Assembly (NCBI GenBank): GCA_009664345.1
Contig: CP043547.1
Coordinates: 1 to 64,000 of the forward strand
Length of the DNA: 64,000 nt
Source: Planctomycetales bacterium 10988
GTDB lineage: Bacteria; Planctomycetota; Planctomycetia; Pirellulales; Pb10988
Direction of reading: 5' to 3'
Shown here: one piece after another, positions 453-33,453 of the stretch
How the letters are laid out: each line of letters starts with the position of its first letter
How positions within the stretch are numbered: position 1 is the stretch's first letter
The notes under the pieces: generated by a model
What the model was told of the DNA's origin: nothing
Database searches by the model: none
The model's input: the letters and a program-made list of their open reading frames with translations, nothing else
Made by a program: the position numbers and the translations under genes

Positions 453-1967
453 GTGGACCCACCTAAAGAGCTAGAACTGGAACAACCCAAGCGCCGAGTG
501 GGACTTCCTTCTTGGTTAGCCCGTCGTAAGCCCCTCAACCCGAAGCTGATGGTTGTTGATGGACAGGCGACCAAAGGGGAGATCGATGTTCGGCTTCCGA
601 TGACGATAGGTCGCGAGCCTGGCATTAGCCTCGTGATCTCCCATCCTCTCGTCAGTCGGAAACATTGCGAATTGGCAGGGCGGGAGGATTATCTTCTGAT
701 CCGCGACCTCAATTCCGCCAATGGGACCTATGTCAATGGCAAACGCATCCACAAAGATGTTGTCTTGAAGCCCGGCGATAAATTGACTGTAGGCCCTTTG
801 ACCTTTGTGGTGGTTTATCAACAAAGTTCCAAAATGTCCTCGCGCCAGGTCTCTCAACGCATGGCGGAAAAAGCTCGAAAGATTGCACAAAATCGGGGAG
901 ACAATCCCGATTCTGTTAACGATGATGAGCCAACTCCGCAACCGATAGAAGCAAAGCAAACACCCGAAAAACCAAAGCAGCAACCGGTAGAGCAGCCTCA
1001 GAATTTTCCTGCTACCGCTTCAACAGAAGTCCATCAAGTTGGCCAGTCCTCCGCGAAAGCCACCCCGGCCAAACAAGCCAAAACCGTCGATGCCGATTCG
1101 CCAGACTATGCGTTCACCTCAGCCGCATTCCATGGATTAGAGGAAGCGGTAGCCTTACCGGATAGCTCCGCAAATGGTTCCGATAGCGATGCGAACGACG
1201 AAGGTTCTTCGTCTATGGATGACTTGGAAAACCTGGGCCTTTTCCTCTCGGAAGCCCAGCGACTGGCCTCGGACGAACGGAAAAAAGCCAAAGCGAAACA
1301 GGCTAAAGAAGAGAACAATCATCTTTCCGACGACGTCTCGGCTTTACTCGAAGAAGATATGGCCGCTCGGGAGAATGTCCCTCCTCGGGAAGGTGAAGCC
1401 GGTCAGACGATGCTAGCCGGTTCCCCGGAGACATCTTCGCGTTTGCTCGACGTGATGGTCACGGTCAAACAGACCGAAAACCACCTGTTTGACGATGAAG
1501 ACACCTCCGAAGAAGAATCTTCCCAGTCCCAAACCGGGGAACAAGCCTCGGATCAAAAGACGATTTGCCGCTTAATCGCTTGCATCGATCTTCTTCAACA
1601 AGGGATCACCGAGCAATATCACGAAGCCTCGGTCACCGCACAGCTCGTCAGCCGTCTCCAAATGGATCAACTCGATCTCATCCATGAAGATATGGACCGT
1701 TTGGCGATTGTAACGAAACTTCTCAAAGAGCAAATCAAAGCTTCCTACCCCAAAATTAAAGTCGACGACCGAGCTCAATTGGAACGCCGACTCCAAGAAG
1801 CTCTTGGCCCTAAACAATCCGGTCAAGATTCCCAACTGGATCGCGGGGTGGAAGACCTGCAACGATGGCTGGTGACTTCCGTCTCGGACTCCCGTGATCG
1901 TCAAGAACGAAAATGGCAACGCCTGCGTGAATATCTCGTTCAATTAGGCATCGACGTTCCATCTTAG
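453..1967 (+). CDS. FHA domain protein with acidic linker and helical C-terminus
   Basis: An FHA (forkhead-associated) phosphothreonine-binding domain covers about residues 31-122, with the diagnostic GR (53-54), SRKH (68-71) and NSANGTYVNG (87-96) motifs. Residues 130-370 are low-complexity, rich in Glu, Asp, Ser, Gln and Pro, probably disordered. The last ~130 residues look helical. No signal peptide or membrane segment, so it is probably cytoplasmic and may read Ser/Thr kinase signals; no kinase is adjacent. The start is GTG preceded by GGAGAG. The FHA domain is closely similar to that of the giant acidic protein starting at 14375, so the two look like paralogues. Specific partner unknown. 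Confidence 0.85.
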   Translation: MDPPKELELEQPKRRVGLPSWLARRKPLNPKLMVVDGQATKGEIDVRLPMTIGREPGISLVISHPLVSRKHCELAGREDYLLIRDLNSANGTYVNGKRIHKDVVLKPGDKLTVGPLTFVVVYQQSSKMSSRQVSQRMAEKARKIAQNRGDNPDSVNDDEPTPQPIEAKQTPEKPKQQPVEQPQNFPATASTEVHQVGQSSAKATPAKQAKTVDADSPDYAFTSAAFHGLEEAVALPDSSANGSDSDANDEGSSSMDDLENLGLFLSEAQRLASDERKKAKAKQAKEENNHLSDDVSALLEEDMAARENVPPREGEAGQTMLAGSPETSSRLLDVMVTVKQTENHLFDDEDTSEEESSQSQTGEQASDQKTICRLIACIDLLQQGITEQYHEASVTAQLVSRLQMDQLDLIHEDMDRLAIVTKLLKEQIKASYPKIKVDDRAQLERRLQEALGPKQSGQDSQLDRGVEDLQRWLVTSVSDSRDRQERKWQRLREYLVQLGIDVPS

Positions 1968-14374: not shown

Positions 14375-17300
14375 ATGCATGCCAAACTAATTGTCGTTGA
14401 AGGCAAAACCAATCGGCGTGAAATCGAATTAGAGCTTCCGATGTTTGTCGGAAGGCGTCGAGATTCTGATTTAGTCATCATGCACAAGACGGTCAGCCGT
14501 CAGCATTGCGAGCTTTATGAAGAAGGTGGGCAACTCATCGTCCGCGATAATAGCTCGGCCAATGGAACCTATATCAACAACCGCAAAATTAGCCAACAAA
14601 TCCTAAAACCCGGCGATAAGTTGAAAATCGGCCCGATTACATTCTTGGCCGAAATCAAAGAAAAAATCCGAAAAGAAGAAGCCGAAGACGATCCCTTCAC
14701 CGGATTCTTTGAGGATGACAATGCCCCCCCCGCGGAGGCTCATGCTCAAATCGCTACCGATTCGGGTCAGTTTACCAGCGACAAAGCTGAAACGATGCAG
14801 ATGGAGGACTTTGATTCTTCCGACGATGATCCTTGGGGAATCGGTCAGCTTGCCAAGAGCTACGCGGAGTCCCATGAGGATATCGACTACCCTGAGGAAG
14901 TCGAGGACGCGGAAGTCGAAGAAGAGAGCGGATTGCAAGCCCATCAATCCGGAGGCCCAGCCGACCCATCAAACGCTTCTTTTATCGAAGGCATGGAAGA
15001 CGCCGATCTCGTCTACCCTGAAGAGGTTGAAGACGATGATCCCGATTCCATCTTCGAACAATCCGATGCCCAAAACGACACGGAAGAAGCGGAGGATTTT
15101 CTCAACTTTCTCTCTGGAAAAGAGAAAGAAGACGAGCCCAAAGCCGCGGAGGCTCAAACCGCCCCGGTGGAAACCCCTGCGGAAGAGGAATTAGAGGAAT
15201 TTCCGCAAGACGATGCCTCCAGTGAAGAAGAGGATTTCGAAGAGGAGCCGGAGACTTCTTCCTTCCCGCTCTCGCAATTCCCCTCCATGGCAGCCACACC
15301 GGGTTCGATGGATTTCGCCGCTTCTTTAGCCTCCCAAGTCGGCATGGGCGATTCAGAAGAAGGCCAACTCGAAGAGGAACTCGATCAGCTAGAGGACGAG
15401 CTTTCTGAATCTTTCGAAGAACAAGATGACTACGCGGAAGGCTACTCCGATGACGAGATGGATTCCAAAAGTGAGGAAAACGCTGAGGAGGAAGAGCTAG
15501 ATACCTACCTGGATCTCACCGAACTCGATCCCAATCTACTTGAGGAAGGCCTCCCTGCTGAAGACTCCGAGGAATTGGAACCCTTCTTTGCCCCTCCCGA
15601 GGTGGATGTCGATAGCTCTCCTGATTCTGTCGAGTTTTTAGTGGAGCAATCCCGCTTTGATGAAGATTCCTTCGATTTAGAAACACAGTCAGAAGAGACG
15701 GACCACCTCTCTGGCGCGCAAAGTGGGGATTATTCCTCTTTGGGAATTGCGGAACTCGCCGCCGAAGAGGGACTTCTAGGCGAGAACGAGATGGACTTCG
15801 AAGGCTCCATTACCGCTCTCCCTTCCGATCAAGAGTTCGACTCGGAAACAGACGACGAAAACCCTTTTACTTCGGATACCTTCAAGAGCCTTTTGGGAGG
15901 TACGGACCAAGCGGAAGAAGAGTTGGGCGATGATTTTTATGAAGATGCCGAAGACGAAGAAGCAATCACCGCTACCGAAGACCTTCCCGAGGAAGAAGAG
16001 GAAACTTCCGCACAGGACCAAATCGCCAGCCTGATTCAAGACCTGAAACAACAAGGCCAGGACGAGAGCGAGGAAGAAGGTGACTTTTTTGCAGAAGATG
16101 CAGAAAACGAGAACGATCTCAGCTCAGCGATCAGCCTCGCCGAAGAACCGGAGATTGATTCGGAACTCCCCGAAGAGGCCGCTTCCTTCGACCTTGACAT
16201 TCCCCAAGAGGAGATCGCTGCGGTAGAACCGGATGAAGTCGCTGCTTACGATGAGGATTCTCCCGAGATGAGCGGACTCTTCGGAGAGCCGCTGGGCCAG
16301 TCGGAAAAGAAAGCGGAGTCCCTCGAACCCGAAGAGGAACCCTCGCTGGGGGAGTCCGAGGAAGCCTTCTACCAGAAGGAGACAACCCCGCCTGACGCTG
16401 AAGAACCAGAGGATTCTGAGGTTGTCGCTGAAGCGGTCGAGCAATTTTCGGAAGAGGAGATCGCCGAAGAGCTGGAGGAAAAGCCCTTTGACGAAATGGC
16501 CGAACTGGAGGCCGCCGCGGAAGAGATAGAGGAAACCACAGCCGAAGATTCGGATTCTGAGAATGAAGACAAAGGAGACCCGGAATCCGAAGAAGAGGAA
16601 GCAGTTGCGACGCTCTCAATCACGGAGGAACCCGAAGTAGAGGCCGAAACTCCCGAAGAAGTCGAGGAAGAGGTCCTCGATATCTCTTGGCCGGAAGGCT
16701 ACGGCGAAAGTTCTAAGCCATCGGAGGAAGACTCAGAAGAACCCAGCGAAGAGGTAGAGGTTTCAGCAGAAGAAGAAGTCCACGACGTAACGGCCGAAGA
16801 GGAACCAGCCGAAGCAACCATGGAAGAAAAGGAGGAGATCCTCGACATTTCCTGGCCTGTTGGTTACGGCGAGACATCTGAAACTACGCCCTCTGAATCT
16901 GAAGAAGCGGCGATAGACGAAACTCCTGTGGAAGAGCCTCTGTCCGAGGAAACGACCGAAGCAGAAGAATCCGTCATCCACGAGTTCGAAGTGGACTCTT
17001 CTTTGGTAGAATCTCTTGAGGAAGAAGTCGCCGAGGAAGAAGTCGCCGAGGAAGAAGTCGCCGAGGAAGAAGTCGCCGAGGAAGAAGTCGCCGAGGAAGA
17101 AGTCGCCGAGGAAGAAGTCGCCGAGGAAGAAGTCGCCGAGGAAGAAGTCGCCGAGGAAGAAGTCGCCGAGGAAGAAGTCGCCGAGGAAGAAGTCGCCGAG
17201 GAAGAAGTCGCCGAGGAAGAAGTCGCCGAGGAAGAAGTCGCCGAGGAAGAAGTCGCCGAGGAAGAAGTCGCCGAGGAAGAAGTCGCCGAGGAAGAAGTCG

Positions 17301-17599
17301 CCGAGGAAGAAGTCGCCGAGGAAGAAGTCGCCGAGGAAGAAGTCGCCGAGGAAGAAGTCGCCGAGGAAGAAGTCGCCGAGGAAGAAGTCGCCGAGGAAGA
17401 AGTCGCCGAGGAAGAAGTCGCCGAGGAAGAAGTCGCCGAGGAAGAAGTCGCCGAGGAAGAAGTCGCCGAGGAGAAGTCGCCGAGGAAGAAGTCGCCGAGG
17501 AAGAAGTCGCCGAGGAAGAAGTCGCCGAGGAAGAAGTCGCCGAGGAAGAAGTCGCCGAGGAAGAAGTCGCCGAGGAAGAAGTCGAAGCTGCTGAGGTAA
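14375..17599 (+). CDS. Giant FHA/acidic-repeat protein, 5' part (frameshifted)
   Basis: The N-terminus is an FHA phosphothreonine-binding domain (residues 1-94; GR at 26-27, SRQH at 41-44, NSSANGTYIN at 59-68). After it come about 780 residues dominated by Glu, Asp and Ser, with recurring blocks such as LDISWPxGYGE (twice), then 30 perfect EEEVA pentapeptides. One base is missing in the next repeat (near 17472), which throws the frame into EEK, seven SPRKK units and SKLLR before a stop at 17599. Restoring the base joins this frame exactly to the one ending at 19485, 1703 residues in all. Start chosen at 14375 behind GGAGGAG. Probably a cytoplasmic scaffold reading kinase signals; function unknown. 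Confidence 0.75.
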   Translation: MHAKLIVVEGKTNRREIELELPMFVGRRRDSDLVIMHKTVSRQHCELYEEGGQLIVRDNSSANGTYINNRKISQQILKPGDKLKIGPITFLAEIKEKIRKEEAEDDPFTGFFEDDNAPPAEAHAQIATDSGQFTSDKAETMQMEDFDSSDDDPWGIGQLAKSYAESHEDIDYPEEVEDAEVEEESGLQAHQSGGPADPSNASFIEGMEDADLVYPEEVEDDDPDSIFEQSDAQNDTEEAEDFLNFLSGKEKEDEPKAAEAQTAPVETPAEEELEEFPQDDASSEEEDFEEEPETSSFPLSQFPSMAATPGSMDFAASLASQVGMGDSEEGQLEEELDQLEDELSESFEEQDDYAEGYSDDEMDSKSEENAEEEELDTYLDLTELDPNLLEEGLPAEDSEELEPFFAPPEVDVDSSPDSVEFLVEQSRFDEDSFDLETQSEETDHLSGAQSGDYSSLGIAELAAEEGLLGENEMDFEGSITALPSDQEFDSETDDENPFTSDTFKSLLGGTDQAEEELGDDFYEDAEDEEAITATEDLPEEEEETSAQDQIASLIQDLKQQGQDESEEEGDFFAEDAENENDLSSAISLAEEPEIDSELPEEAASFDLDIPQEEIAAVEPDEVAAYDEDSPEMSGLFGEPLGQSEKKAESLEPEEEPSLGESEEAFYQKETTPPDAEEPEDSEVVAEAVEQFSEEEIAEELEEKPFDEMAELEAAAEEIEETTAEDSDSENEDKGDPESEEEEAVATLSITEEPEVEAETPEEVEEEVLDISWPEGYGESSKPSEEDSEEPSEEVEVSAEEEVHDVTAEEEPAEATMEEKEEILDISWPVGYGETSETTPSESEEAAIDETPVEEPLSEETTEAEESVIHEFEVDSSLVESLEEEVAEEEVAEEEVAEEEVAEEEVAEEEVAEEEVAEEEVAEEEVAEEEVAEEEVAEEEVAEEEVAEEEVAEEEVAEEEVAEEEVAEEEVAEEEVAEEEVAEEEVAEEEVAEEEVAEEEVAEEEVAEEEVAEEEVAEEEVAEEEVAEEEVAEEKSPRKKSPRKKSPRKKSPRKKSPRKKSPRKKSPRKKSKLLR
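17018..17586 (+). repeat. 15-bp tandem repeat array encoding EEEVA
   Basis: The unit GAGGAAGAAGTCGCC is repeated perfectly 30 times from 17018 to 17467. Unit 31 (17468-17481) has only 14 bases, lacking one A. Six more perfect units follow from 17482, then a partial unit ending in GTCGAA. In frame it encodes acidic Glu-Glu-Glu-Val-Ala; one base out of frame it encodes basic Ser-Pro-Arg-Lys-Lys. The absence of silent changes between copies implies recent expansion or ongoing homogenisation. Confidence 0.97.
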
Positions 17600-17820
17600 T
17601 CGAAGACACAGAACTTTCCGATGAGAAAGAACCCGAGGTAGAACAAGAATCCTCCGAAGAGCCCGAAGCGGAAGCCTCAACCTCCGAAGAACTGGAAGAG
17701 AAGGTTCTCGATGAAGAGGATGCTCCAACCCCCGAGGCAGTTGAGGAGGAACCTTCCGAACAAGAGCCTGAATCCTCTGAAGAAGACGAACCTGCGGCAG
17801 AAGAATCAGACGAAATCGAA

Positions 17821-19485
17821 GTGGAATCGAGCGTAGAAGCGGAAGAGGCGAAGGAAGAACTCGTCGAACCCATCCAAGAAAGTGACGAACTCCTCAAAGA
17901 CCAAGAATCGCGGGCGTTCTCGTCTTGGGTCTCTGAAGAGGGAGTTGACGAACTCTCCGAACTTTCAGGAGCGTTTCCACTTGATGCGTTCGAGCTGACG
18001 GAAGGTCCGGTGGCCTCCACACCTGATTCGTTTGATCATGATCTCCTTTCGGAGCAAAAGCCCGAGGACCTTTCCGCAAAGCTCGACACCGAAGACTCTG
18101 GCGAAGAAGTCGAAACTCTGGAAGCGATTGAAACCGACGAGGACGAAGAGACCAGTATCCCCACTCTGACGGAAGCAGCTGGCGACGAACCTCCGGAGGA
18201 TACCTCAACGCCTGAGATAACCGACTCGGATGGTGAGGAAGAAGAGGTAGAGGTTCTCGAAATCGCCTCTGAAGAGACTTCCAAGATCGAATCGGAATCG
18301 GAAGATAATCCTCTATTCAGTCAAAAATCCGAAGAAGAAGACGATCAAGATGAGGTAGAGGCCGAACTTGAAATCGCCGACGAAGCGGACGAGGAGGAAG
18401 AATTCCTCACCTTGGAAATCGCTGAATCCGATGACGAAGCGCTCGAACAGGTCGAAGAGCCGGAAGCCTCCACTCCGGAAACGGATAGCATCTTCGAATA
18501 TGAGAAAACGCTCAAAAATGCTGAGCCGATCGAAGATAGCTCCGGTTCCATCTTCTCCCATATCTCTGAACGTGATTCCGAAGACAGCTTCCTCGACTCC
18601 GAGGATTCAGCGGAGATGGATTTACCGTCCGAAAACCTTTCCGCCCTTGATGCTTCTTTGGAAGAAATTCAGCAAGACCGGGATGCCCATAAGAAAAAAT
18701 CTTCCGATCTGAGTACCTCCTCTAGCTCGATCGCTCCCGAATTTCTTTTCTCAGTTCCCAATTTCGATGCAGAAACAAGTTCTGAAGAAGATTCCAAAAC
18801 CGAAGAGGAAGACGAACCCGCTGTCTTTGGCAACGCATCATCCCTCAAAGAGGAAACTCTGTCAGCGGAGGAAGAAGATGACGACGAAATCTCTTCTGCC
18901 TTGGATATTCCCTACGAACAAGAAACTTCCAACGAACTCCCGGGGGCCATCGAAGGGGAGACTGATGATTCAGCAGGAGATATCTTCTCAGCCAGTGAAC
19001 ACCTCTCGGAACCGCTTAACTCCCTATCAGACATTATTGACGCCGAAATTCCTTCTGCGGAACCAGAAGAGGTAGAAGAAGCAAACGCCGAACTTCTCAC
19101 GGAATTGCCTAGCGACGAAGAAGTCTCGGACGAAGAAGTCTCGGACGAAGAAGTCTCGGACGAAGAAGTCTCGGACGAAGAAGTCTCGGACGAAGAAGTC
19201 TCGGACGAAGAAGTCTCGGACGAAGAAGTCTCGGACGAAGAAGTCTCGGACGAAGAAGTCACCGACGAAGAAGTCTCTGCAGAAGATACGGAATCGGACG
19301 ATGAAGAGGAGAAAGAAGAAACGAAAGCGGAGAGCGAAGAAGACGACCTTGATTATGAAGAGTCGCTCGCCTTTCGCGATCTGCCCGAAGGCCCAGAAGA
19401 AGAAATTCACCGGCTAGAAGATTTGGCGGACCTTCAATCGCCGGTCTCTGTAAACGAAGAAACTAAAGAGGAAGACGAAGATTAA
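17821..19485 (+). CDS. Giant FHA/acidic-repeat protein, 3' part
   Basis: Continuation of the same acidic protein after the frameshift. The frame is open from the repeat array itself (17482 onwards); GTG at 17821 is only the first recognised start codon and has no ribosome-binding site. Composition is again dominated by Glu, Asp and Ser, with no predicted globular domain, signal peptide or membrane segment, and a second pentapeptide array (SDEEV ten times, then TDEEV). It ends with a short acidic tail. On its own it would have no FHA domain; it makes sense only as the C-terminal half of the gene starting at 14375. A hairpin follows the stop. Confidence 0.65.
19111..19275 (+). repeat. Second 15-bp tandem array encoding SDEEV
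   Basis: Eleven 15-base units: one AGC-start variant, nine perfect copies of TCGGACGAAGAAGTC (19126-19260) and one ACC-start variant. It shares the core GAAGAAGTC with the larger array 1.5 kb upstream, so the two probably have a common origin. It stays in frame throughout. Confidence 0.95.
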
Positions 19486-29156: not shown

Positions 29157-29681
29157 ATGTCCGAACCGTGGGACTTTGCCACCCTCATTCAACAACATCA
29201 AGCAGGCATCTGGCGTTACTTGCGGGTGCTGGGTTGTGGATTGAGCGAAGCGGAAGACCTCACGCAAGAAACGTTTCTCGCGGTTTTCCAAAAGCCCTTT
29301 GAAATCCAAAGTAAAGCGGCAACTAGGGCCTATCTTCGTAAGGTCGCCAAGAGTCAGTACTTGATGAGTTTGCGAAAGACAGGTCGTTCGATCTCCTTGG
29401 AAGAGTTGAACGAGCGAGAGGCCCTCTGGGATCAATGGTCTCCGGAAGATGAAGGCGATTTGATGTTGATTGCCTTGGAATCTTGCCTCAGCCAACTCCC
29501 AGAGCGAACGCAAAAGGCCCTCAAGTTGCAATATCACGAGCATTGCAGTCGGCAAGAGATCGCGGACACTTTGGAACTTAGCCCGGATGGGACCAAGAAT
29601 TTGTTGCAACGGGCAAAACAATCTTTGAAACAATGTATAGAGAGAAAATTACGTGTCTTCTCCGAAAGATCATCTTCTTAA
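29157..29681 (+). CDS. ECF-type RNA polymerase sigma factor
   Basis: A 174-residue ECF sigma factor. Region 2 spans residues ~8-75 with LSEAEDLTQETFLAVF and the AYLRKVAKSQYL melting helix; region 4 spans ~105-165 with LPERTQKALKLQYHEHCSRQEIADTLELS and a recognition helix ending in NLLQRAKQSL. The start ATG follows GGAGAACCT. Its 3' end overlaps the next gene by 29 bases in another frame, a strong sign of translational coupling. The partner encoded there has a cytoplasmic N-terminus and one membrane segment, so it may act as its anti-sigma factor. Confidence 0.93.
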   Translation: MSEPWDFATLIQQHQAGIWRYLRVLGCGLSEAEDLTQETFLAVFQKPFEIQSKAATRAYLRKVAKSQYLMSLRKTGRSISLEELNEREALWDQWSPEDEGDLMLIALESCLSQLPERTQKALKLQYHEHCSRQEIADTLELSPDGTKNLLQRAKQSLKQCIERKLRVFSERSSS

Positions 29682-31983
29682 TATCGGCCTTGAGGAAGTG
29701 CTCGGTGGGCAACAACCGCCCGACCTGACCGCACGCATCCTCGCCGCGGCAGCGCAGCGGCAGCCCGAAGGTGTATCTTCCGAGAAAGCAGTGGTCTCTT
29801 CAAATCACCGAGCGAATCTCCTTCCGCTGTCAGCCGATGTCGATGAACAAGTCATCTTGAATGGCTCTTCTCATTCGCTGACGAAGTCGCAAACCGTCTC
29901 TTCTCGACAGTTAACATTTAATTGGAAAACGACATTTTCCATCGCTGCCAGCATTCTATTTGTAGTCGGAGTTAGTTGGTGGTCCGTCCAATTTCAACGA
30001 AACTCCTCCGAACTTGTTACCAATTCAGAATCTTTACCGTTATTAGAAGGGGATCGAGTTTTTGACCCACGGCTTCAATCGGATGTCAGTTCCGAATCTT
30101 CTTCGGAAGATAAGATGGAAAACCATCGCTCGTCTGACCCCATGCTGTCCCCCTCTCCGAGCGAGTTGGTCCATTCGGAAACTTCCGGAAATCGTTCGAC
30201 TCCTACGGTCGATGACTTTTCCGATGACGAGACAGCGACCTCTCCCCCTTTTATAGCGAAGAACTCTCAGCAGCGTGATGCCTCCTCTCCCTTAGCATCA
30301 CCTGCTGAAGAGCCTTCGTTAGTCACTTCTAAGAAATCCCGTTCGCAGCAAAAACCCTCAGGGACCGAAGGTATCTACGCAAGTGCTTCCTTCAATGAAG
30401 ATGTTTTGCTGCAACGGGTCAATTTCGAAATTGAGCAGCGGTGGAAAGATGTCGATGTCTACCCGGCCCCACCTGCGGAAGATGCGGAGTGGTGCCGCCG
30501 GGTGTTTGTGGATGTGTTGGGAAGAATCCCTACGGCAGAAGAAATCAGCTATTTCACGGCAGACCCCTCGCCCGACAAGCGATTGCATTTGATCGATCGG
30601 CTTTTATATGCGGAGCCCTACGCCGAAGAATTCGCCCAGTATTGGGCGACGATTTGGTGCAATCAATTGATCGGTCGGGCGGGAGGTCGCCGAGCTAACG
30701 CTCAGGTCAATCGCGAGGCCCTCCATGAGTGGCTCGCAACGGCCTTTCACAATAATCTCCCTTATAATGAGTTGGTTTCCAAGTTGATCTCGGTTACTGG
30801 CAGCAATCAGCCGACAGCGCCGAACTATCAAGGAGCGACGAACTTTCTCTTGGCCCACTTGGAGCAAGATCAGGTTCCCGCCACCAACAAGGTTTCCGAA
30901 CTCTTTTTGGGAATGCAAATTGGCTGTACCCAATGCCATCATCATCCATTCAATGACTGGAAGCAAGAACATTTTTGGGGATTGAATGCCTTTTTTAAAC
31001 AAACCCAAGCCGTCGATGCGGTGGATGATCAAGGGCGAAAGTACACCAAGCTCGTCAATCGTGACTTCTCTGGACAAGGGGCGAACACGATCGACGCGGC
31101 AGAAATTTACTACGAACAACGAAACGGACTGTTGAAAGTTGCCTATCCGACGTTTCTCGATGGAACAAGAATCGATCCCAACGGGGCAGTCGATCAGATT
31201 GTCCGTCGGGATGCACTGGCAAAGCTTTTAACCGACCACCACCGATTCAGTCAGGCGTTTGTCAATCGTATGTGGAGCCATTTTCTCGGGGTTGGCTTCA
31301 CGCAACGCATCGAGGATTGGGGGCCGCATCAACCGCCTTCGCATCCTCAAGTTTTGCAAGAATTGGCAAACGCCTTCACCGAACAAGGCTATGATCAAAA
31401 GAAACTCATTCGCTGGATCGTCTCGACGGAGGCTTATGGGCTTTCCAGTCGCGTAACGCCTGGCAATGAAGCGGATCATCCAGAATCGGGAATCTATCCT
31501 CTCTTCAGTCGTTTTTATATTCGACAAATGGAGCCGGAGGTGCTTTACGATTCATTGTTAACTGCGACTTTGCCATCGTCGGTTTCTTCCGAGGTTTTGT
31601 TGCAAACACGTATAGAACATCAACAAACCCGACTCGATTGGGTGCAACAATTTGTTGTCACTTTCAATACAGAAGAAAACACCGAAGACAGTACCTTTGA
31701 CGGTTCGGTTTCCCAAGCCTTGATGATGATGAACGGTCCCTTTATGGAAGAGGCCACGGCCATGACTCCAGGGAGTTTTCTCCATCAATTGGCTTATCAA
31801 CCGGGCAAACCAACCGATAAATATAATCACTTGTTTTTAGCCGCTTTAGGTCGCCCGCCCGCTCGTAGTGAAATGAATTTTGCCCAGCGATTTCAACGCT
31901 CGCATGGTGGCGATCTTTTATCCGGCATGCAAGATGTGTGGTGGGTTTTATTAAATAGTAATGAGTTCATTATGAACCATTAA
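29653..31983 (+). CDS. DUF1549/DUF1553 protein with anti-sigma-like N-terminus
   Basis: A 776-residue protein. A short cytoplasmic segment containing LEEVLGGQQPPDLTARIL (14-30) precedes one membrane helix (about 93-113). A Ser-rich linker leads to DUF1549 (about 250-460), which holds a CTQCHHHP motif (425-432) resembling a haem- or metal-binding CxxCH, and DUF1553 (about 520-770, FVNRMWSHFLGVGF onward). These planctomycete families are exported and often linked to cytochrome-like modules; their enzymatic role is not established. GTG start inside the sigma-factor gene. The layout suggests sigma control by an outer sensor, which is inference. The DUF1501 gene follows. Confidence 0.82.
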   Translation: MSSPKDHLLNIGLEEVLGGQQPPDLTARILAAAAQRQPEGVSSEKAVVSSNHRANLLPLSADVDEQVILNGSSHSLTKSQTVSSRQLTFNWKTTFSIAASILFVVGVSWWSVQFQRNSSELVTNSESLPLLEGDRVFDPRLQSDVSSESSSEDKMENHRSSDPMLSPSPSELVHSETSGNRSTPTVDDFSDDETATSPPFIAKNSQQRDASSPLASPAEEPSLVTSKKSRSQQKPSGTEGIYASASFNEDVLLQRVNFEIEQRWKDVDVYPAPPAEDAEWCRRVFVDVLGRIPTAEEISYFTADPSPDKRLHLIDRLLYAEPYAEEFAQYWATIWCNQLIGRAGGRRANAQVNREALHEWLATAFHNNLPYNELVSKLISVTGSNQPTAPNYQGATNFLLAHLEQDQVPATNKVSELFLGMQIGCTQCHHHPFNDWKQEHFWGLNAFFKQTQAVDAVDDQGRKYTKLVNRDFSGQGANTIDAAEIYYEQRNGLLKVAYPTFLDGTRIDPNGAVDQIVRRDALAKLLTDHHRFSQAFVNRMWSHFLGVGFTQRIEDWGPHQPPSHPQVLQELANAFTEQGYDQKKLIRWIVSTEAYGLSSRVTPGNEADHPESGIYPLFSRFYIRQMEPEVLYDSLLTATLPSSVSSEVLLQTRIEHQQTRLDWVQQFVVTFNTEENTEDSTFDGSVSQALMMMNGPFMEEATAMTPGSFLHQLAYQPGKPTDKYNHLFLAALGRPPARSEMNFAQRFQRSHGGDLLSGMQDVWWVLLNSNEFIMNH

Positions 31984-32217: not shown

Positions 32218-33453
32218 ATGATGAATCGACGCCACTTTATGAAGCATGCCGCTGGTGCCTCCGCTTTGGCAGGTACCTCGATCAGCTTCACCCAATCCCT
32301 TTCAGCCCAAATTGACACGCTGAAGAAAAACCAAAAATCTGCCATCTTAATGTGGATGAGTGGCGGTCCGAGCACCATGGACATTTGGGACCTCAAACCG
32401 AATGCTCCCACTGGCGGGGCTTTCAAACCGATCTCGACCACCGGGGATATGCAAATTTGCGAACATATGCCCATGATGGCCAAGAATATGGACAAGGTTT
32501 CTTTGGTCCGCTCGATGAGCACCCGAGAAGCCGACCATGAACGTGGCCGTTATTATATGCATACCGGTTTTGTGCCGAATCCGAACGTCGCCCATCCTAG
32601 CTATGGTTCGGTTGTTTCTCATCAACTTGCCGATAAAGACGCCACTTTGCCGCCGTTTATCTCCGTCGGTGGAGGTTCGATCGGCCCTGGTTTCTTGGGA
32701 ATGTCCTATGCTCCGCTGGTTGTGAATTCGAACGGCCAAGTAAACAACATTCAAGGCTTGGTCGAACAAGACCGCTTGATGCAACGGATGCACATGTTGC
32801 GTGCCATCGAAGGTCGTTTCATCAACGAAAATCGCGGCGAACCCGCCAAGGATCACGCCAAGATTCTTGATAAAACCTTGGCCTTGATGACCAGCGAACA
32901 AATGAAAGCCTTCCGCGTGATGGAAGAAGACCCCAAGGTTCTCGAACGTTACGGGGATAATAATTTCGGTCGCGGCCTGTGCTTGGCTCGCCGTTTGGTG
33001 GAAGCCGGGGTTTCCTTTATCGAAGTGAATCTCGGTGGTTGGGATATGCACCAAAATATTTTCCCGACCTTGGAAACCCGCTTGCCAATGATGGATCAAG
33101 CGATGAGTGCCTTGATTGAAGATTTGAACCAACGTGGCATGATGGAAAATGTGGTCCTCATGTGGATGGGTGAATTCAGCCGTACTCCGCGTATTAATGC
33201 CACGGCTGGTCGCGATCACTGGGCTCGCAGCTGGACTGCCATGGTCGGTGGGGGCAAGATTCAAGGCGGTCGTGCCATCGGGGAATCCAATGAAGATGGA
33301 ACCGCGGTTGTTTCAGAACCCTATAGCTCTGAAGACCTGATGGCTTCGGTCTGTCATGCCATGGATATTTCCTTGCAAACGACCTTCACCAGTGGAAACG
33401 GTCGTCCGATGAAAATCGCCAATGGTGGTCGCCTCATCGAAGGACTTTTCTAA
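32218..33453 (+). CDS. DUF1501 family Tat-exported protein
   Basis: A 411-residue protein of the DUF1501 family, whose fold is related to alkaline phosphatase/sulfatase proteins. The N-terminus MMNRRHFMKHAAGASALAG is a twin-arginine leader (RRHFM). The opening WMSGGPSTMDIWDLKP and the later MWMGEFSRTPRINATAGRDHWA block are family hallmarks, with conserved Asp/His likely to bind metal. DUF1501 genes usually follow DUF1549/DUF1553 genes in planctomycetes, as here (234-base gap). GGGAG lies nine bases before the first ATG. Substrate unknown. A strong terminator lies ~150 bases downstream. Confidence 0.9.
   Translation: MMNRRHFMKHAAGASALAGTSISFTQSLSAQIDTLKKNQKSAILMWMSGGPSTMDIWDLKPNAPTGGAFKPISTTGDMQICEHMPMMAKNMDKVSLVRSMSTREADHERGRYYMHTGFVPNPNVAHPSYGSVVSHQLADKDATLPPFISVGGGSIGPGFLGMSYAPLVVNSNGQVNNIQGLVEQDRLMQRMHMLRAIEGRFINENRGEPAKDHAKILDKTLALMTSEQMKAFRVMEEDPKVLERYGDNNFGRGLCLARRLVEAGVSFIEVNLGGWDMHQNIFPTLETRLPMMDQAMSALIEDLNQRGMMENVVLMWMGEFSRTPRINATAGRDHWARSWTAMVGGGKIQGGRAIGESNEDGTAVVSEPYSSEDLMASVCHAMDISLQTTFTSGNGRPMKIANGGRLIEGLF

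What the first reader, a model, noticed from the sequence alone, without database searches (positions are those of the whole stretch)
14375..19485. One missing base splits a 1703-residue FHA/acidic-repeat gene and swaps its tail charge
In the 15-bp EEEVA array, repeat unit 31 (17468-17481) has 14 bases. The reading frame then changes from acidic EEEVA to basic SPRKK (seven copies, then SKLLR and a stop at 17599). Inserting one A restores a single open frame from 14375 to 19485, exactly divisible by three. Either this is an assembly/sequencing error, a recent mutation, or a length-variable switch between a long acidic protein and a short one with a basic SPRK-type tail, a motif known for DNA binding in some histones.
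Basis: partly seen in the sequence, partly recalled or inferred. Interest (0 to 1): 0.75.

Follow-up and report, generated by a model that had tools for sequence, protein, structure and literature searches.

The report
Frame break in acidic repeat gene
A long bacterial gene for a strongly acidic signalling-type protein is recorded with one base missing inside a 37-unit repeat, most likely an assembly slip or a very recent mutation, and the positively charged tail that results is an automatic by-product of reading such DNA out of frame.

Summary
In the 15-bp array at 17018-17586, 36 of 37 units are identical and unit 31 (17468-17481) has 14 bases. The frame from 14375 then runs into 7 SPRKK and a stop at 17599; the acidic frame stays open to 19485 with the same codon-position signature. 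This is one gene: an N-terminal FHA domain and a very long acidic tail, a build found in one open frame in 12 same-order relatives examined.

The switch reading is not supported. Units of 15 bp gain or lose copies in frame, the array has no run longer than 2 bases, and the other forward frames on both sides of the array also read strongly basic (+26 to +34 per 100 residues against -30 to -36 in frame). The SPRKK tail is mechanical.

The break is a residual consensus error in a hard-to-polish repeat, or a very recent mutation. In 1.264 Mb of the genome no second comparable break appeared among 27 candidates. Reads are needed to decide; no other genome of the family is held. Separately, relatives often carry this FHA gene beside tig-clpP-clpP with a C-terminal motif.

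The parts
14375..19485 (+). one FHA/acidic-tail gene, split in this assembly by a one-base shortfall in the 15-bp array
14375..14701 (+). N-terminal FHA domain region
   Evidence: Pfam PF00498, 69.6 bits against cut-off 20.7; nearest solved chains are FHA proteins such as GarA
14375..17599 (+). upstream open frame as recorded, 1074 residues, net charge -332 including a 41-residue end of net charge +24
17018..17586 (+). 15-bp tandem array coding EEEVA, 37 units (36 identical, one of 14 bases) plus a partial unit
17468..17481 (+). unit 31, 14 bases, where the frame changes
   Evidence: frame change placed at 17472/17473 by the coding model
17482..19485 (+). downstream acidic open frame, 667 residues, net charge -252; its first ATG/GTG/TTG is the GTG at 17821
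19114..19277 (+). second 15-bp array, coding DEEVS, 10.9 copies, frame unbroken

Best explanation
14375-19485 is a single gene for an FHA protein with a very long acidic, presumably disordered tail that grows by in-frame duplication of short units. The frame break in unit 31 is not programmed: it is a residual consensus error in the array (my estimate 0.55) or a very recent loss-of-frame mutation (0.38). By inference, not shown here, the intact protein binds phosphothreonine partners of Ser/Thr kinases through its FHA domain, with the tail as a long charged spacer or docking surface. The SPRKK end has no evolved role.
For: Frame, array and codon signature. FHA domain above cut-off. In 12 relatives examined (11 picked for long open frames, plus L054), FHA and an acidic tail form one open frame; whole proteins have 20-29% D+E and net charge -64 to -273 (L049 runs off its contig). 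Of the tandem-repeat rows in those loci, 19 of 19 inside the FHA frame have a period divisible by 3, against 3 of 9 outside it (counted by hand; some rows overlap). The window's break is the only 1 of 27 candidate frame changes in 1.264 Mb with no start codon for the downstream piece near the upstream stop. Frames +1 and +2 are basic on both sides of the array. PMC8442456 (passages only): 91% of assembly errors in its tests were indels, and after short-read polishing most remaining errors lay in genomic repeats. That a 569-bp array behaves like those repeats is inference.
Against: No second comparable break was found in 19% of the genome, with 69 of 114 planted deletions recovered, so a general quality problem is unlikely and only a repeat-specific error or a real mutation is left. 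A perfect 28-copy 7-bp array (L172) has no irregular unit. The commonest differences in PMC8442456 were homopolymer lengths, which this site is not, and it reports errors of long-read-only assemblies in repeat and non-repeat sequence alike. The window protein lacks the C-terminal motif and the tig neighbour of many relatives, so function cannot be carried over safely. A deletion common in the population would look the same.
Confidence: 0.9

Rival explanations
1. Residual consensus error of a long-read assembly inside the array; the organism has one intact gene.
For: A single-base deletion in the interior of a near-perfect 569-bp array, 105 bases from its nearer end, where short-read polishing is expected to be unreliable (PMC8442456, passages; extension to this array is inference). 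The other 36 units are perfect and 667 downstream codons are intact. The genome is one contig of 6.65 Mb, so long reads were probably used (inference).
Against: No other comparable break in 1.264 Mb; a perfect 28-copy array elsewhere is regular. Not a homopolymer, and one unit of 37 is hit, so not a systematic base-calling fault.
Confidence: 0.55
2. A real, very recent one-base deletion that truncates the protein (pseudogene in the making, or a strain-level loss).
For: The sampled assembly is otherwise clean. Tandem arrays are mutable (general knowledge). The downstream frame has not decayed, so the break would have to be recent.
Against: No read or sibling evidence; the same-family search returned only this genome. 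Copy-number slippage in a 15-bp array gives multiples of 15, not single bases.
Confidence: 0.38
3. A length-variable switch between a long acidic and a short basic-ended protein.
For: The unit lacks stops in all six frames, so a frame change inside the array always gives a basic stretch and then an early stop; one such state is recorded.
Against: Unit of 15 bp, no run longer than 2 bases; basic charge is automatic on both sides of the array; the longest 15-bp array inside the relatives' FHA frames examined has 5.1 copies.
Confidence: 0.04
4. Programmed recoding (ribosomal or transcriptional slippage) restores the long frame.
For: The downstream frame is kept open.
Against: No run longer than 2 bases in the array, so neither a polymerase slippage run nor the classic X XXY YYZ heptamer (recalled) occurs there.
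Confidence: 0.02

Closest known systems
FHA domain proteins (Pfam PF00498), e.g. GarA/OdhI type
   Same: N-terminal domain scores above the curated cut-off and aligns with GarA over the core including the SRxH and NGTY stretches.
   Different: The solved GarA chains have 115-186 residues; here the domain is followed by an acidic tail of about 1600 residues.
FHA plus long acidic tail proteins of same-order relatives (probably Pirellulales)
   Same: FHA region 42-54% identical in the 12 examined; one long acidic frame; short in-frame duplications.
   Different: Many relatives lie beside tig-clpP-clpP and end in an acidic FLxxLG motif; the window gene has neither. Its 15-bp array is much longer and purer.
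Simple-sequence contingency loci (phase variation; recalled, listings only)
   Same: Tandem repeat inside a coding frame; a frame change truncates the product.
   Different: Unit is 15 bp, so copy number does not move the frame.
SPKK-type basic extensions of sperm histones (PMC9903204, title and start of abstract in the listing)
   Same: Repeated SPRKK letters.
   Different: Here they arise by reading acidic-coding DNA out of step.

Membership tests
FHA domain family PF00498 | profile score over the curated cut-off | tested here: met
   69.6 bits against 20.7; 73.3 bits in the genome search
FHA domain family PF00498 | phosphothreonine-binding residues (GR, SRxH, NG; roles recalled) | tested here: met
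   GRR, SRQH and NGTY align with GarA; binding itself not tested
tig-linked FHA/acidic-tail group of the order | FHA followed by a long acidic tail in one frame | tested here: inconclusive
   FHA and acidic tail are there, but the frame is broken as recorded; the two pieces were read separately
tig-linked FHA/acidic-tail group of the order | tig-clpP-clpP neighbourhood | tested here: not met
   tig lies at 6136340 and none of the 17 FHA places is near it; 11 genes around the window's FHA gene have no match in 17 loci tested. One window gene 13 kb further on (32218-33450) resembles a gene near the FHA gene of L045 (not followed up)
tig-linked FHA/acidic-tail group of the order | C-terminal acidic FLxxLG motif | tested here: not met
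   nothing like it at the end; best downstream score 5.7 lies 160 residues from the end (shuffled 95% point 4.4), against 11.2-21.0 for the 13 instances that built the profile
Phase-variable contingency locus | copy change shifts the reading frame | tested here: not met
   unit 15 bp
Phase-variable contingency locus | variation within a population | not testable with these tools
   no reads, no sibling genome
Programmed frameshift site | slippery run at the site | tested here: not met
   longest run in the array 2 bases
Evolved basic DNA-binding tail (SPKK type) | basic stretch specific to the tail | tested here: not met
   shifted frames are basic on both sides of the array
Evolved basic DNA-binding tail (SPKK type) | conservation of the basic tail in siblings | not testable with these tools
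   no other genome of the family is held

The most novel reading that the evidence does not exclude
The deletion is real and segregates in the population, so that cells make either a long all-acidic FHA protein or a shorter one whose end carries seven SPRKK units that fold back on the acidic tail, or bind DNA in competition with it.
Probability: 0.03. Interest if true: 0.65.

Novelty: new member of a known kind. Interest (0 to 1): 0.2.

Why it matters
As a finding it is mainly a caution: a coding tandem array is an expected place for an assembly slip, and acidic GA-rich genes read basic in the other frames, so charge-swapped tails are no evidence of design. The gene itself points to a group of FHA proteins with giant acidic tails, linked in many relatives to trigger factor and ClpP, which deserves its own study; one full-text search found no paper that names FHA, trigger factor, ClpP and Planctomycet- together.

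Tried and rejected
Siblings, to see whether the deletion is fixed: the same-family search returned only the window's own genome. The array pattern with up to 3 mismatches was found in 3 of 396 genomes of the order, own included; the other two have 3 places in all. The genome-contig scan gave 29 loci, none closer than 53% identity to the FHA region.

Second copy of the array: none in the genome.

General assembly frameshifts, with a home-made frame model. First run (penalty 14, 400 kb each): 1 candidate in G000 and 2 in the comparison genome G016, sensitivity 36 of 77. Second run (penalty 12, 1.264 Mb, G000 only): 27 candidates, sensitivity 69 of 114 deletions planted in the first 39 of the 60 stretches. 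26 of 27 have a possible start codon near the upstream stop and so are compatible with overlapping or adjacent genes. I looked at translations of only 7 of those 26; three look like transposase pieces by eye, no family search was run on them, and for three of the 7 the script printed an empty upstream piece, so these were judged on the downstream piece and coordinates. Nine of the 60 stretches were placed at FHA loci on purpose and four directly after the window, so the sample is not random.

Other arrays in the sample: the two other perfect ones have 7-bp units (28 and 7 copies); the rest are diverged, and TRF reports indels of 1-5% in several of them, for instance L102 and L149, so irregular arrays as such are not unusual here.

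Synteny with relatives: no shared neighbour among 11 window genes tested. A tree of 36 FHA rows does not resolve the window gene's place. The C-terminal motif search in the window protein was negative; the regular expression was written after I had seen the C-termini, and the profile was scored on its own instances. Paper searches: FHA domain with Planctomycetes, 9 papers, listing only; tandem repeat and assembly errors, 1 paper, passages read; tandem repeats and phase variation, 10 papers, listing only; SPKK, 4 papers, listing only; FHA with trigger factor, ClpP and Planctomycet, 0 papers. No structure was predicted.

Full report
Observation. The window is the first 64 kb of a single-contig genome of 6,649,480 bases. 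At 17018 a 15-bp array begins: 30 identical units, one of 14 bases (17468-17481), six more identical units and a partial one (Tandem Repeats Finder 37.9 copies, 99%). The frame that starts at 14375 changes there from EEEVA to SPRKK and ends at 17599. The acidic frame resumes at 17482 and is open to 19485.

One gene. G+C by codon position is 0.68/0.35/0.54 for 14375-17017 and 0.69/0.34/0.49 from the array's end to 19485. A three-periodic coding model trained on this genome follows the gene across the break, 14375-17472 in one frame and 17473-19485 in another, with log-odds of 294 and 153. The downstream piece has no start codon near the upstream stop; its first ATG/GTG/TTG is the GTG at 17821.

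What the gene is. The first 109 residues hold an FHA domain (PF00498, 69.6 bits, cut-off 20.7) close to GarA-type domains in the PDB (best E 5.7e-12). The rest is acidic: net charge -354 up to unit 31 and -252 in the downstream piece. In the 57 genomes of the relatives search (own included, the others all 'same order'), 57 of 57 have a match to the FHA region. The best named hit is a Pirellulales MAG contig, 53% identical, so the order is inferred, not shown, to be Pirellulales. I fetched 11 longer relative loci picked for long open frames and used L054 as well; in these 12 the FHA domain and an acidic tail form one open frame, whole proteins 393-1707 residues long (L049 runs off its contig). 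Because of that choice they do not measure how often such genes break.

How the tail changes. Within the FHA frames of those relatives, 19 of 19 tandem-repeat rows have periods of 15, 18, 21 or 27; outside the frames 3 of 9 rows have a period divisible by 3 (counted by hand, overlapping rows included). The tail therefore seems to grow and shrink in whole codons, and the window's two arrays (15-bp units, 37 and about 11 copies) are extreme cases of that. Slippage by whole units in such an array does not change the frame.

The basic end. The 15-bp unit has no stop in any of six frames; forward it reads EEEVA, RKKSP or GRSRR. The second array gives DEEVS, TKKSR or RRSLG. On the two sides of the EEEVA array (the downstream side includes the DEEVS array) the gene reads -30 and -36 net charge per 100 residues in frame and +26 to +34 in the two other forward frames. 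Three ordinary genes of the window read about -4 in frame and +6 to +19 out of frame. Acidic codons GAA and GAG become Lys or Arg codons when shifted. The charge swap is thus automatic, and the 41-residue basic end (+24) leaves the truncated product at -332.

Error or mutation. I sampled 60 stretches of 20 kb plus the window, 1.264 Mb or 19% of the genome, nine of them placed on purpose at FHA loci and four beside the window. The model found 27 frame changes among 814 coding segments, with 69 of 114 planted deletions recovered. Only the window's break, 1 of 27, lacks a start codon for its second half near the upstream stop. Unprogrammed frame errors are therefore rare in the sample, which speaks against a general quality problem. 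An earlier, stricter run gave 1 candidate in 400 kb of this genome and 2 in 400 kb of G016. The break lies inside the largest near-perfect short-unit array of the sample, and according to PMC8442456 (passages) most errors that survive short-read polishing lie in repeats; but the same paper's commonest differences were homopolymer lengths, which this is not, and a perfect 28-copy 7-bp array in the sample is regular. A genuine recent deletion fits the same facts. No other genome of the family is held and no reads are at hand. I put 0.55 on error, 0.38 on mutation, 0.04 on a switch and 0.02 on recoding; these are judgements, not computed.

Switch and recoding. A contingency switch needs repeat units that move the frame, or a hypermutable run; the unit is 15 bp and the longest run in the array is 2. 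The same absence leaves no usual slippery site in the array.

Relation to the order's FHA group. In relatives the gene is often head-to-head with tig, which is followed by two clpP genes: 13 of the 29 short loci L010-L038 show tig within their flank of at most 1.5 kb; of the 12 longer loci (L042-L052, L054) 10 have tig and 8 have both clpP genes. L045 and L050 have none of them. The tail commonly ends in an acidic FLxxLG motif: 19 of 29 by a regular expression written after the C-termini had been seen (L010-L038 without L029, dropped for running off its contig, plus L054). L028, L030, L031, L033, L034, L036 and L037 fail it; L014, L016 and L020 also fail but look similar by eye. Several loci belong to the same family and are not independent. 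The window protein has neither the neighbour nor the motif at its end (its best internal score, 5.7, exceeds the 95% point of shuffles, 4.4, but lies 160 residues from the end, and the upstream piece scores 5.5 as well). A tree of the FHA region does not place it. It is a diverged paralog of this group at best; three other FHA genes with E below 1e-24 to it lie in the genome.

Verdict.

Noticed in passing
L042-L054 and L010-L038 (relatives): FHA genes with giant acidic tails sit head-to-head with trigger factor and two clpP genes in many same-order genomes (tig in 13 of 29 short loci and 10 of 12 longer ones), the tails often end in an acidic FLxxLG motif (19 of 29), and several carry internal WWPFGRK-like patches followed by lysines.
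   Followed up: partly
window 29157-31983: A sigma-factor-like gene and a large DUF1549-like gene (names by recall) overlap by 29 bases in different frames; an ordinary overlap that the frame model flags.
   Followed up: yes
L172 13734-13931: A perfect 7-bp array TATTCCC of 28 copies in the same genome.
   Followed up: no
L102 4038-4524: Imperfect 15/30-bp arrays, Cys-Cys-Glu-Pro type by eye, with some indels reported by TRF.
   Followed up: no
L091 3519-4357, L152 10057-10895, L183 760-1598: Three two-frame pairs of exactly the same segment lengths (377 and 462 bases); the L091 one reads like a transposase by eye. Probably copies of one insertion element; their sequences were not compared.
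   Followed up: no
L054 525-627: A 7-copy 15-bp array inside the open frame that holds trigger factor, next to the FHA gene, in a Pirellulales MAG.
   Followed up: no
window 32218-33450 and L045 6865-8286: A window gene 13 kb beyond the FHA gene resembles a gene near the FHA gene of relative L045; possibly chance.
   Followed up: no
window 453-1964: Another FHA gene of the same group (47% identical in the domain) lies 12 kb upstream; 17 FHA places in the genome in all.
   Followed up: partly
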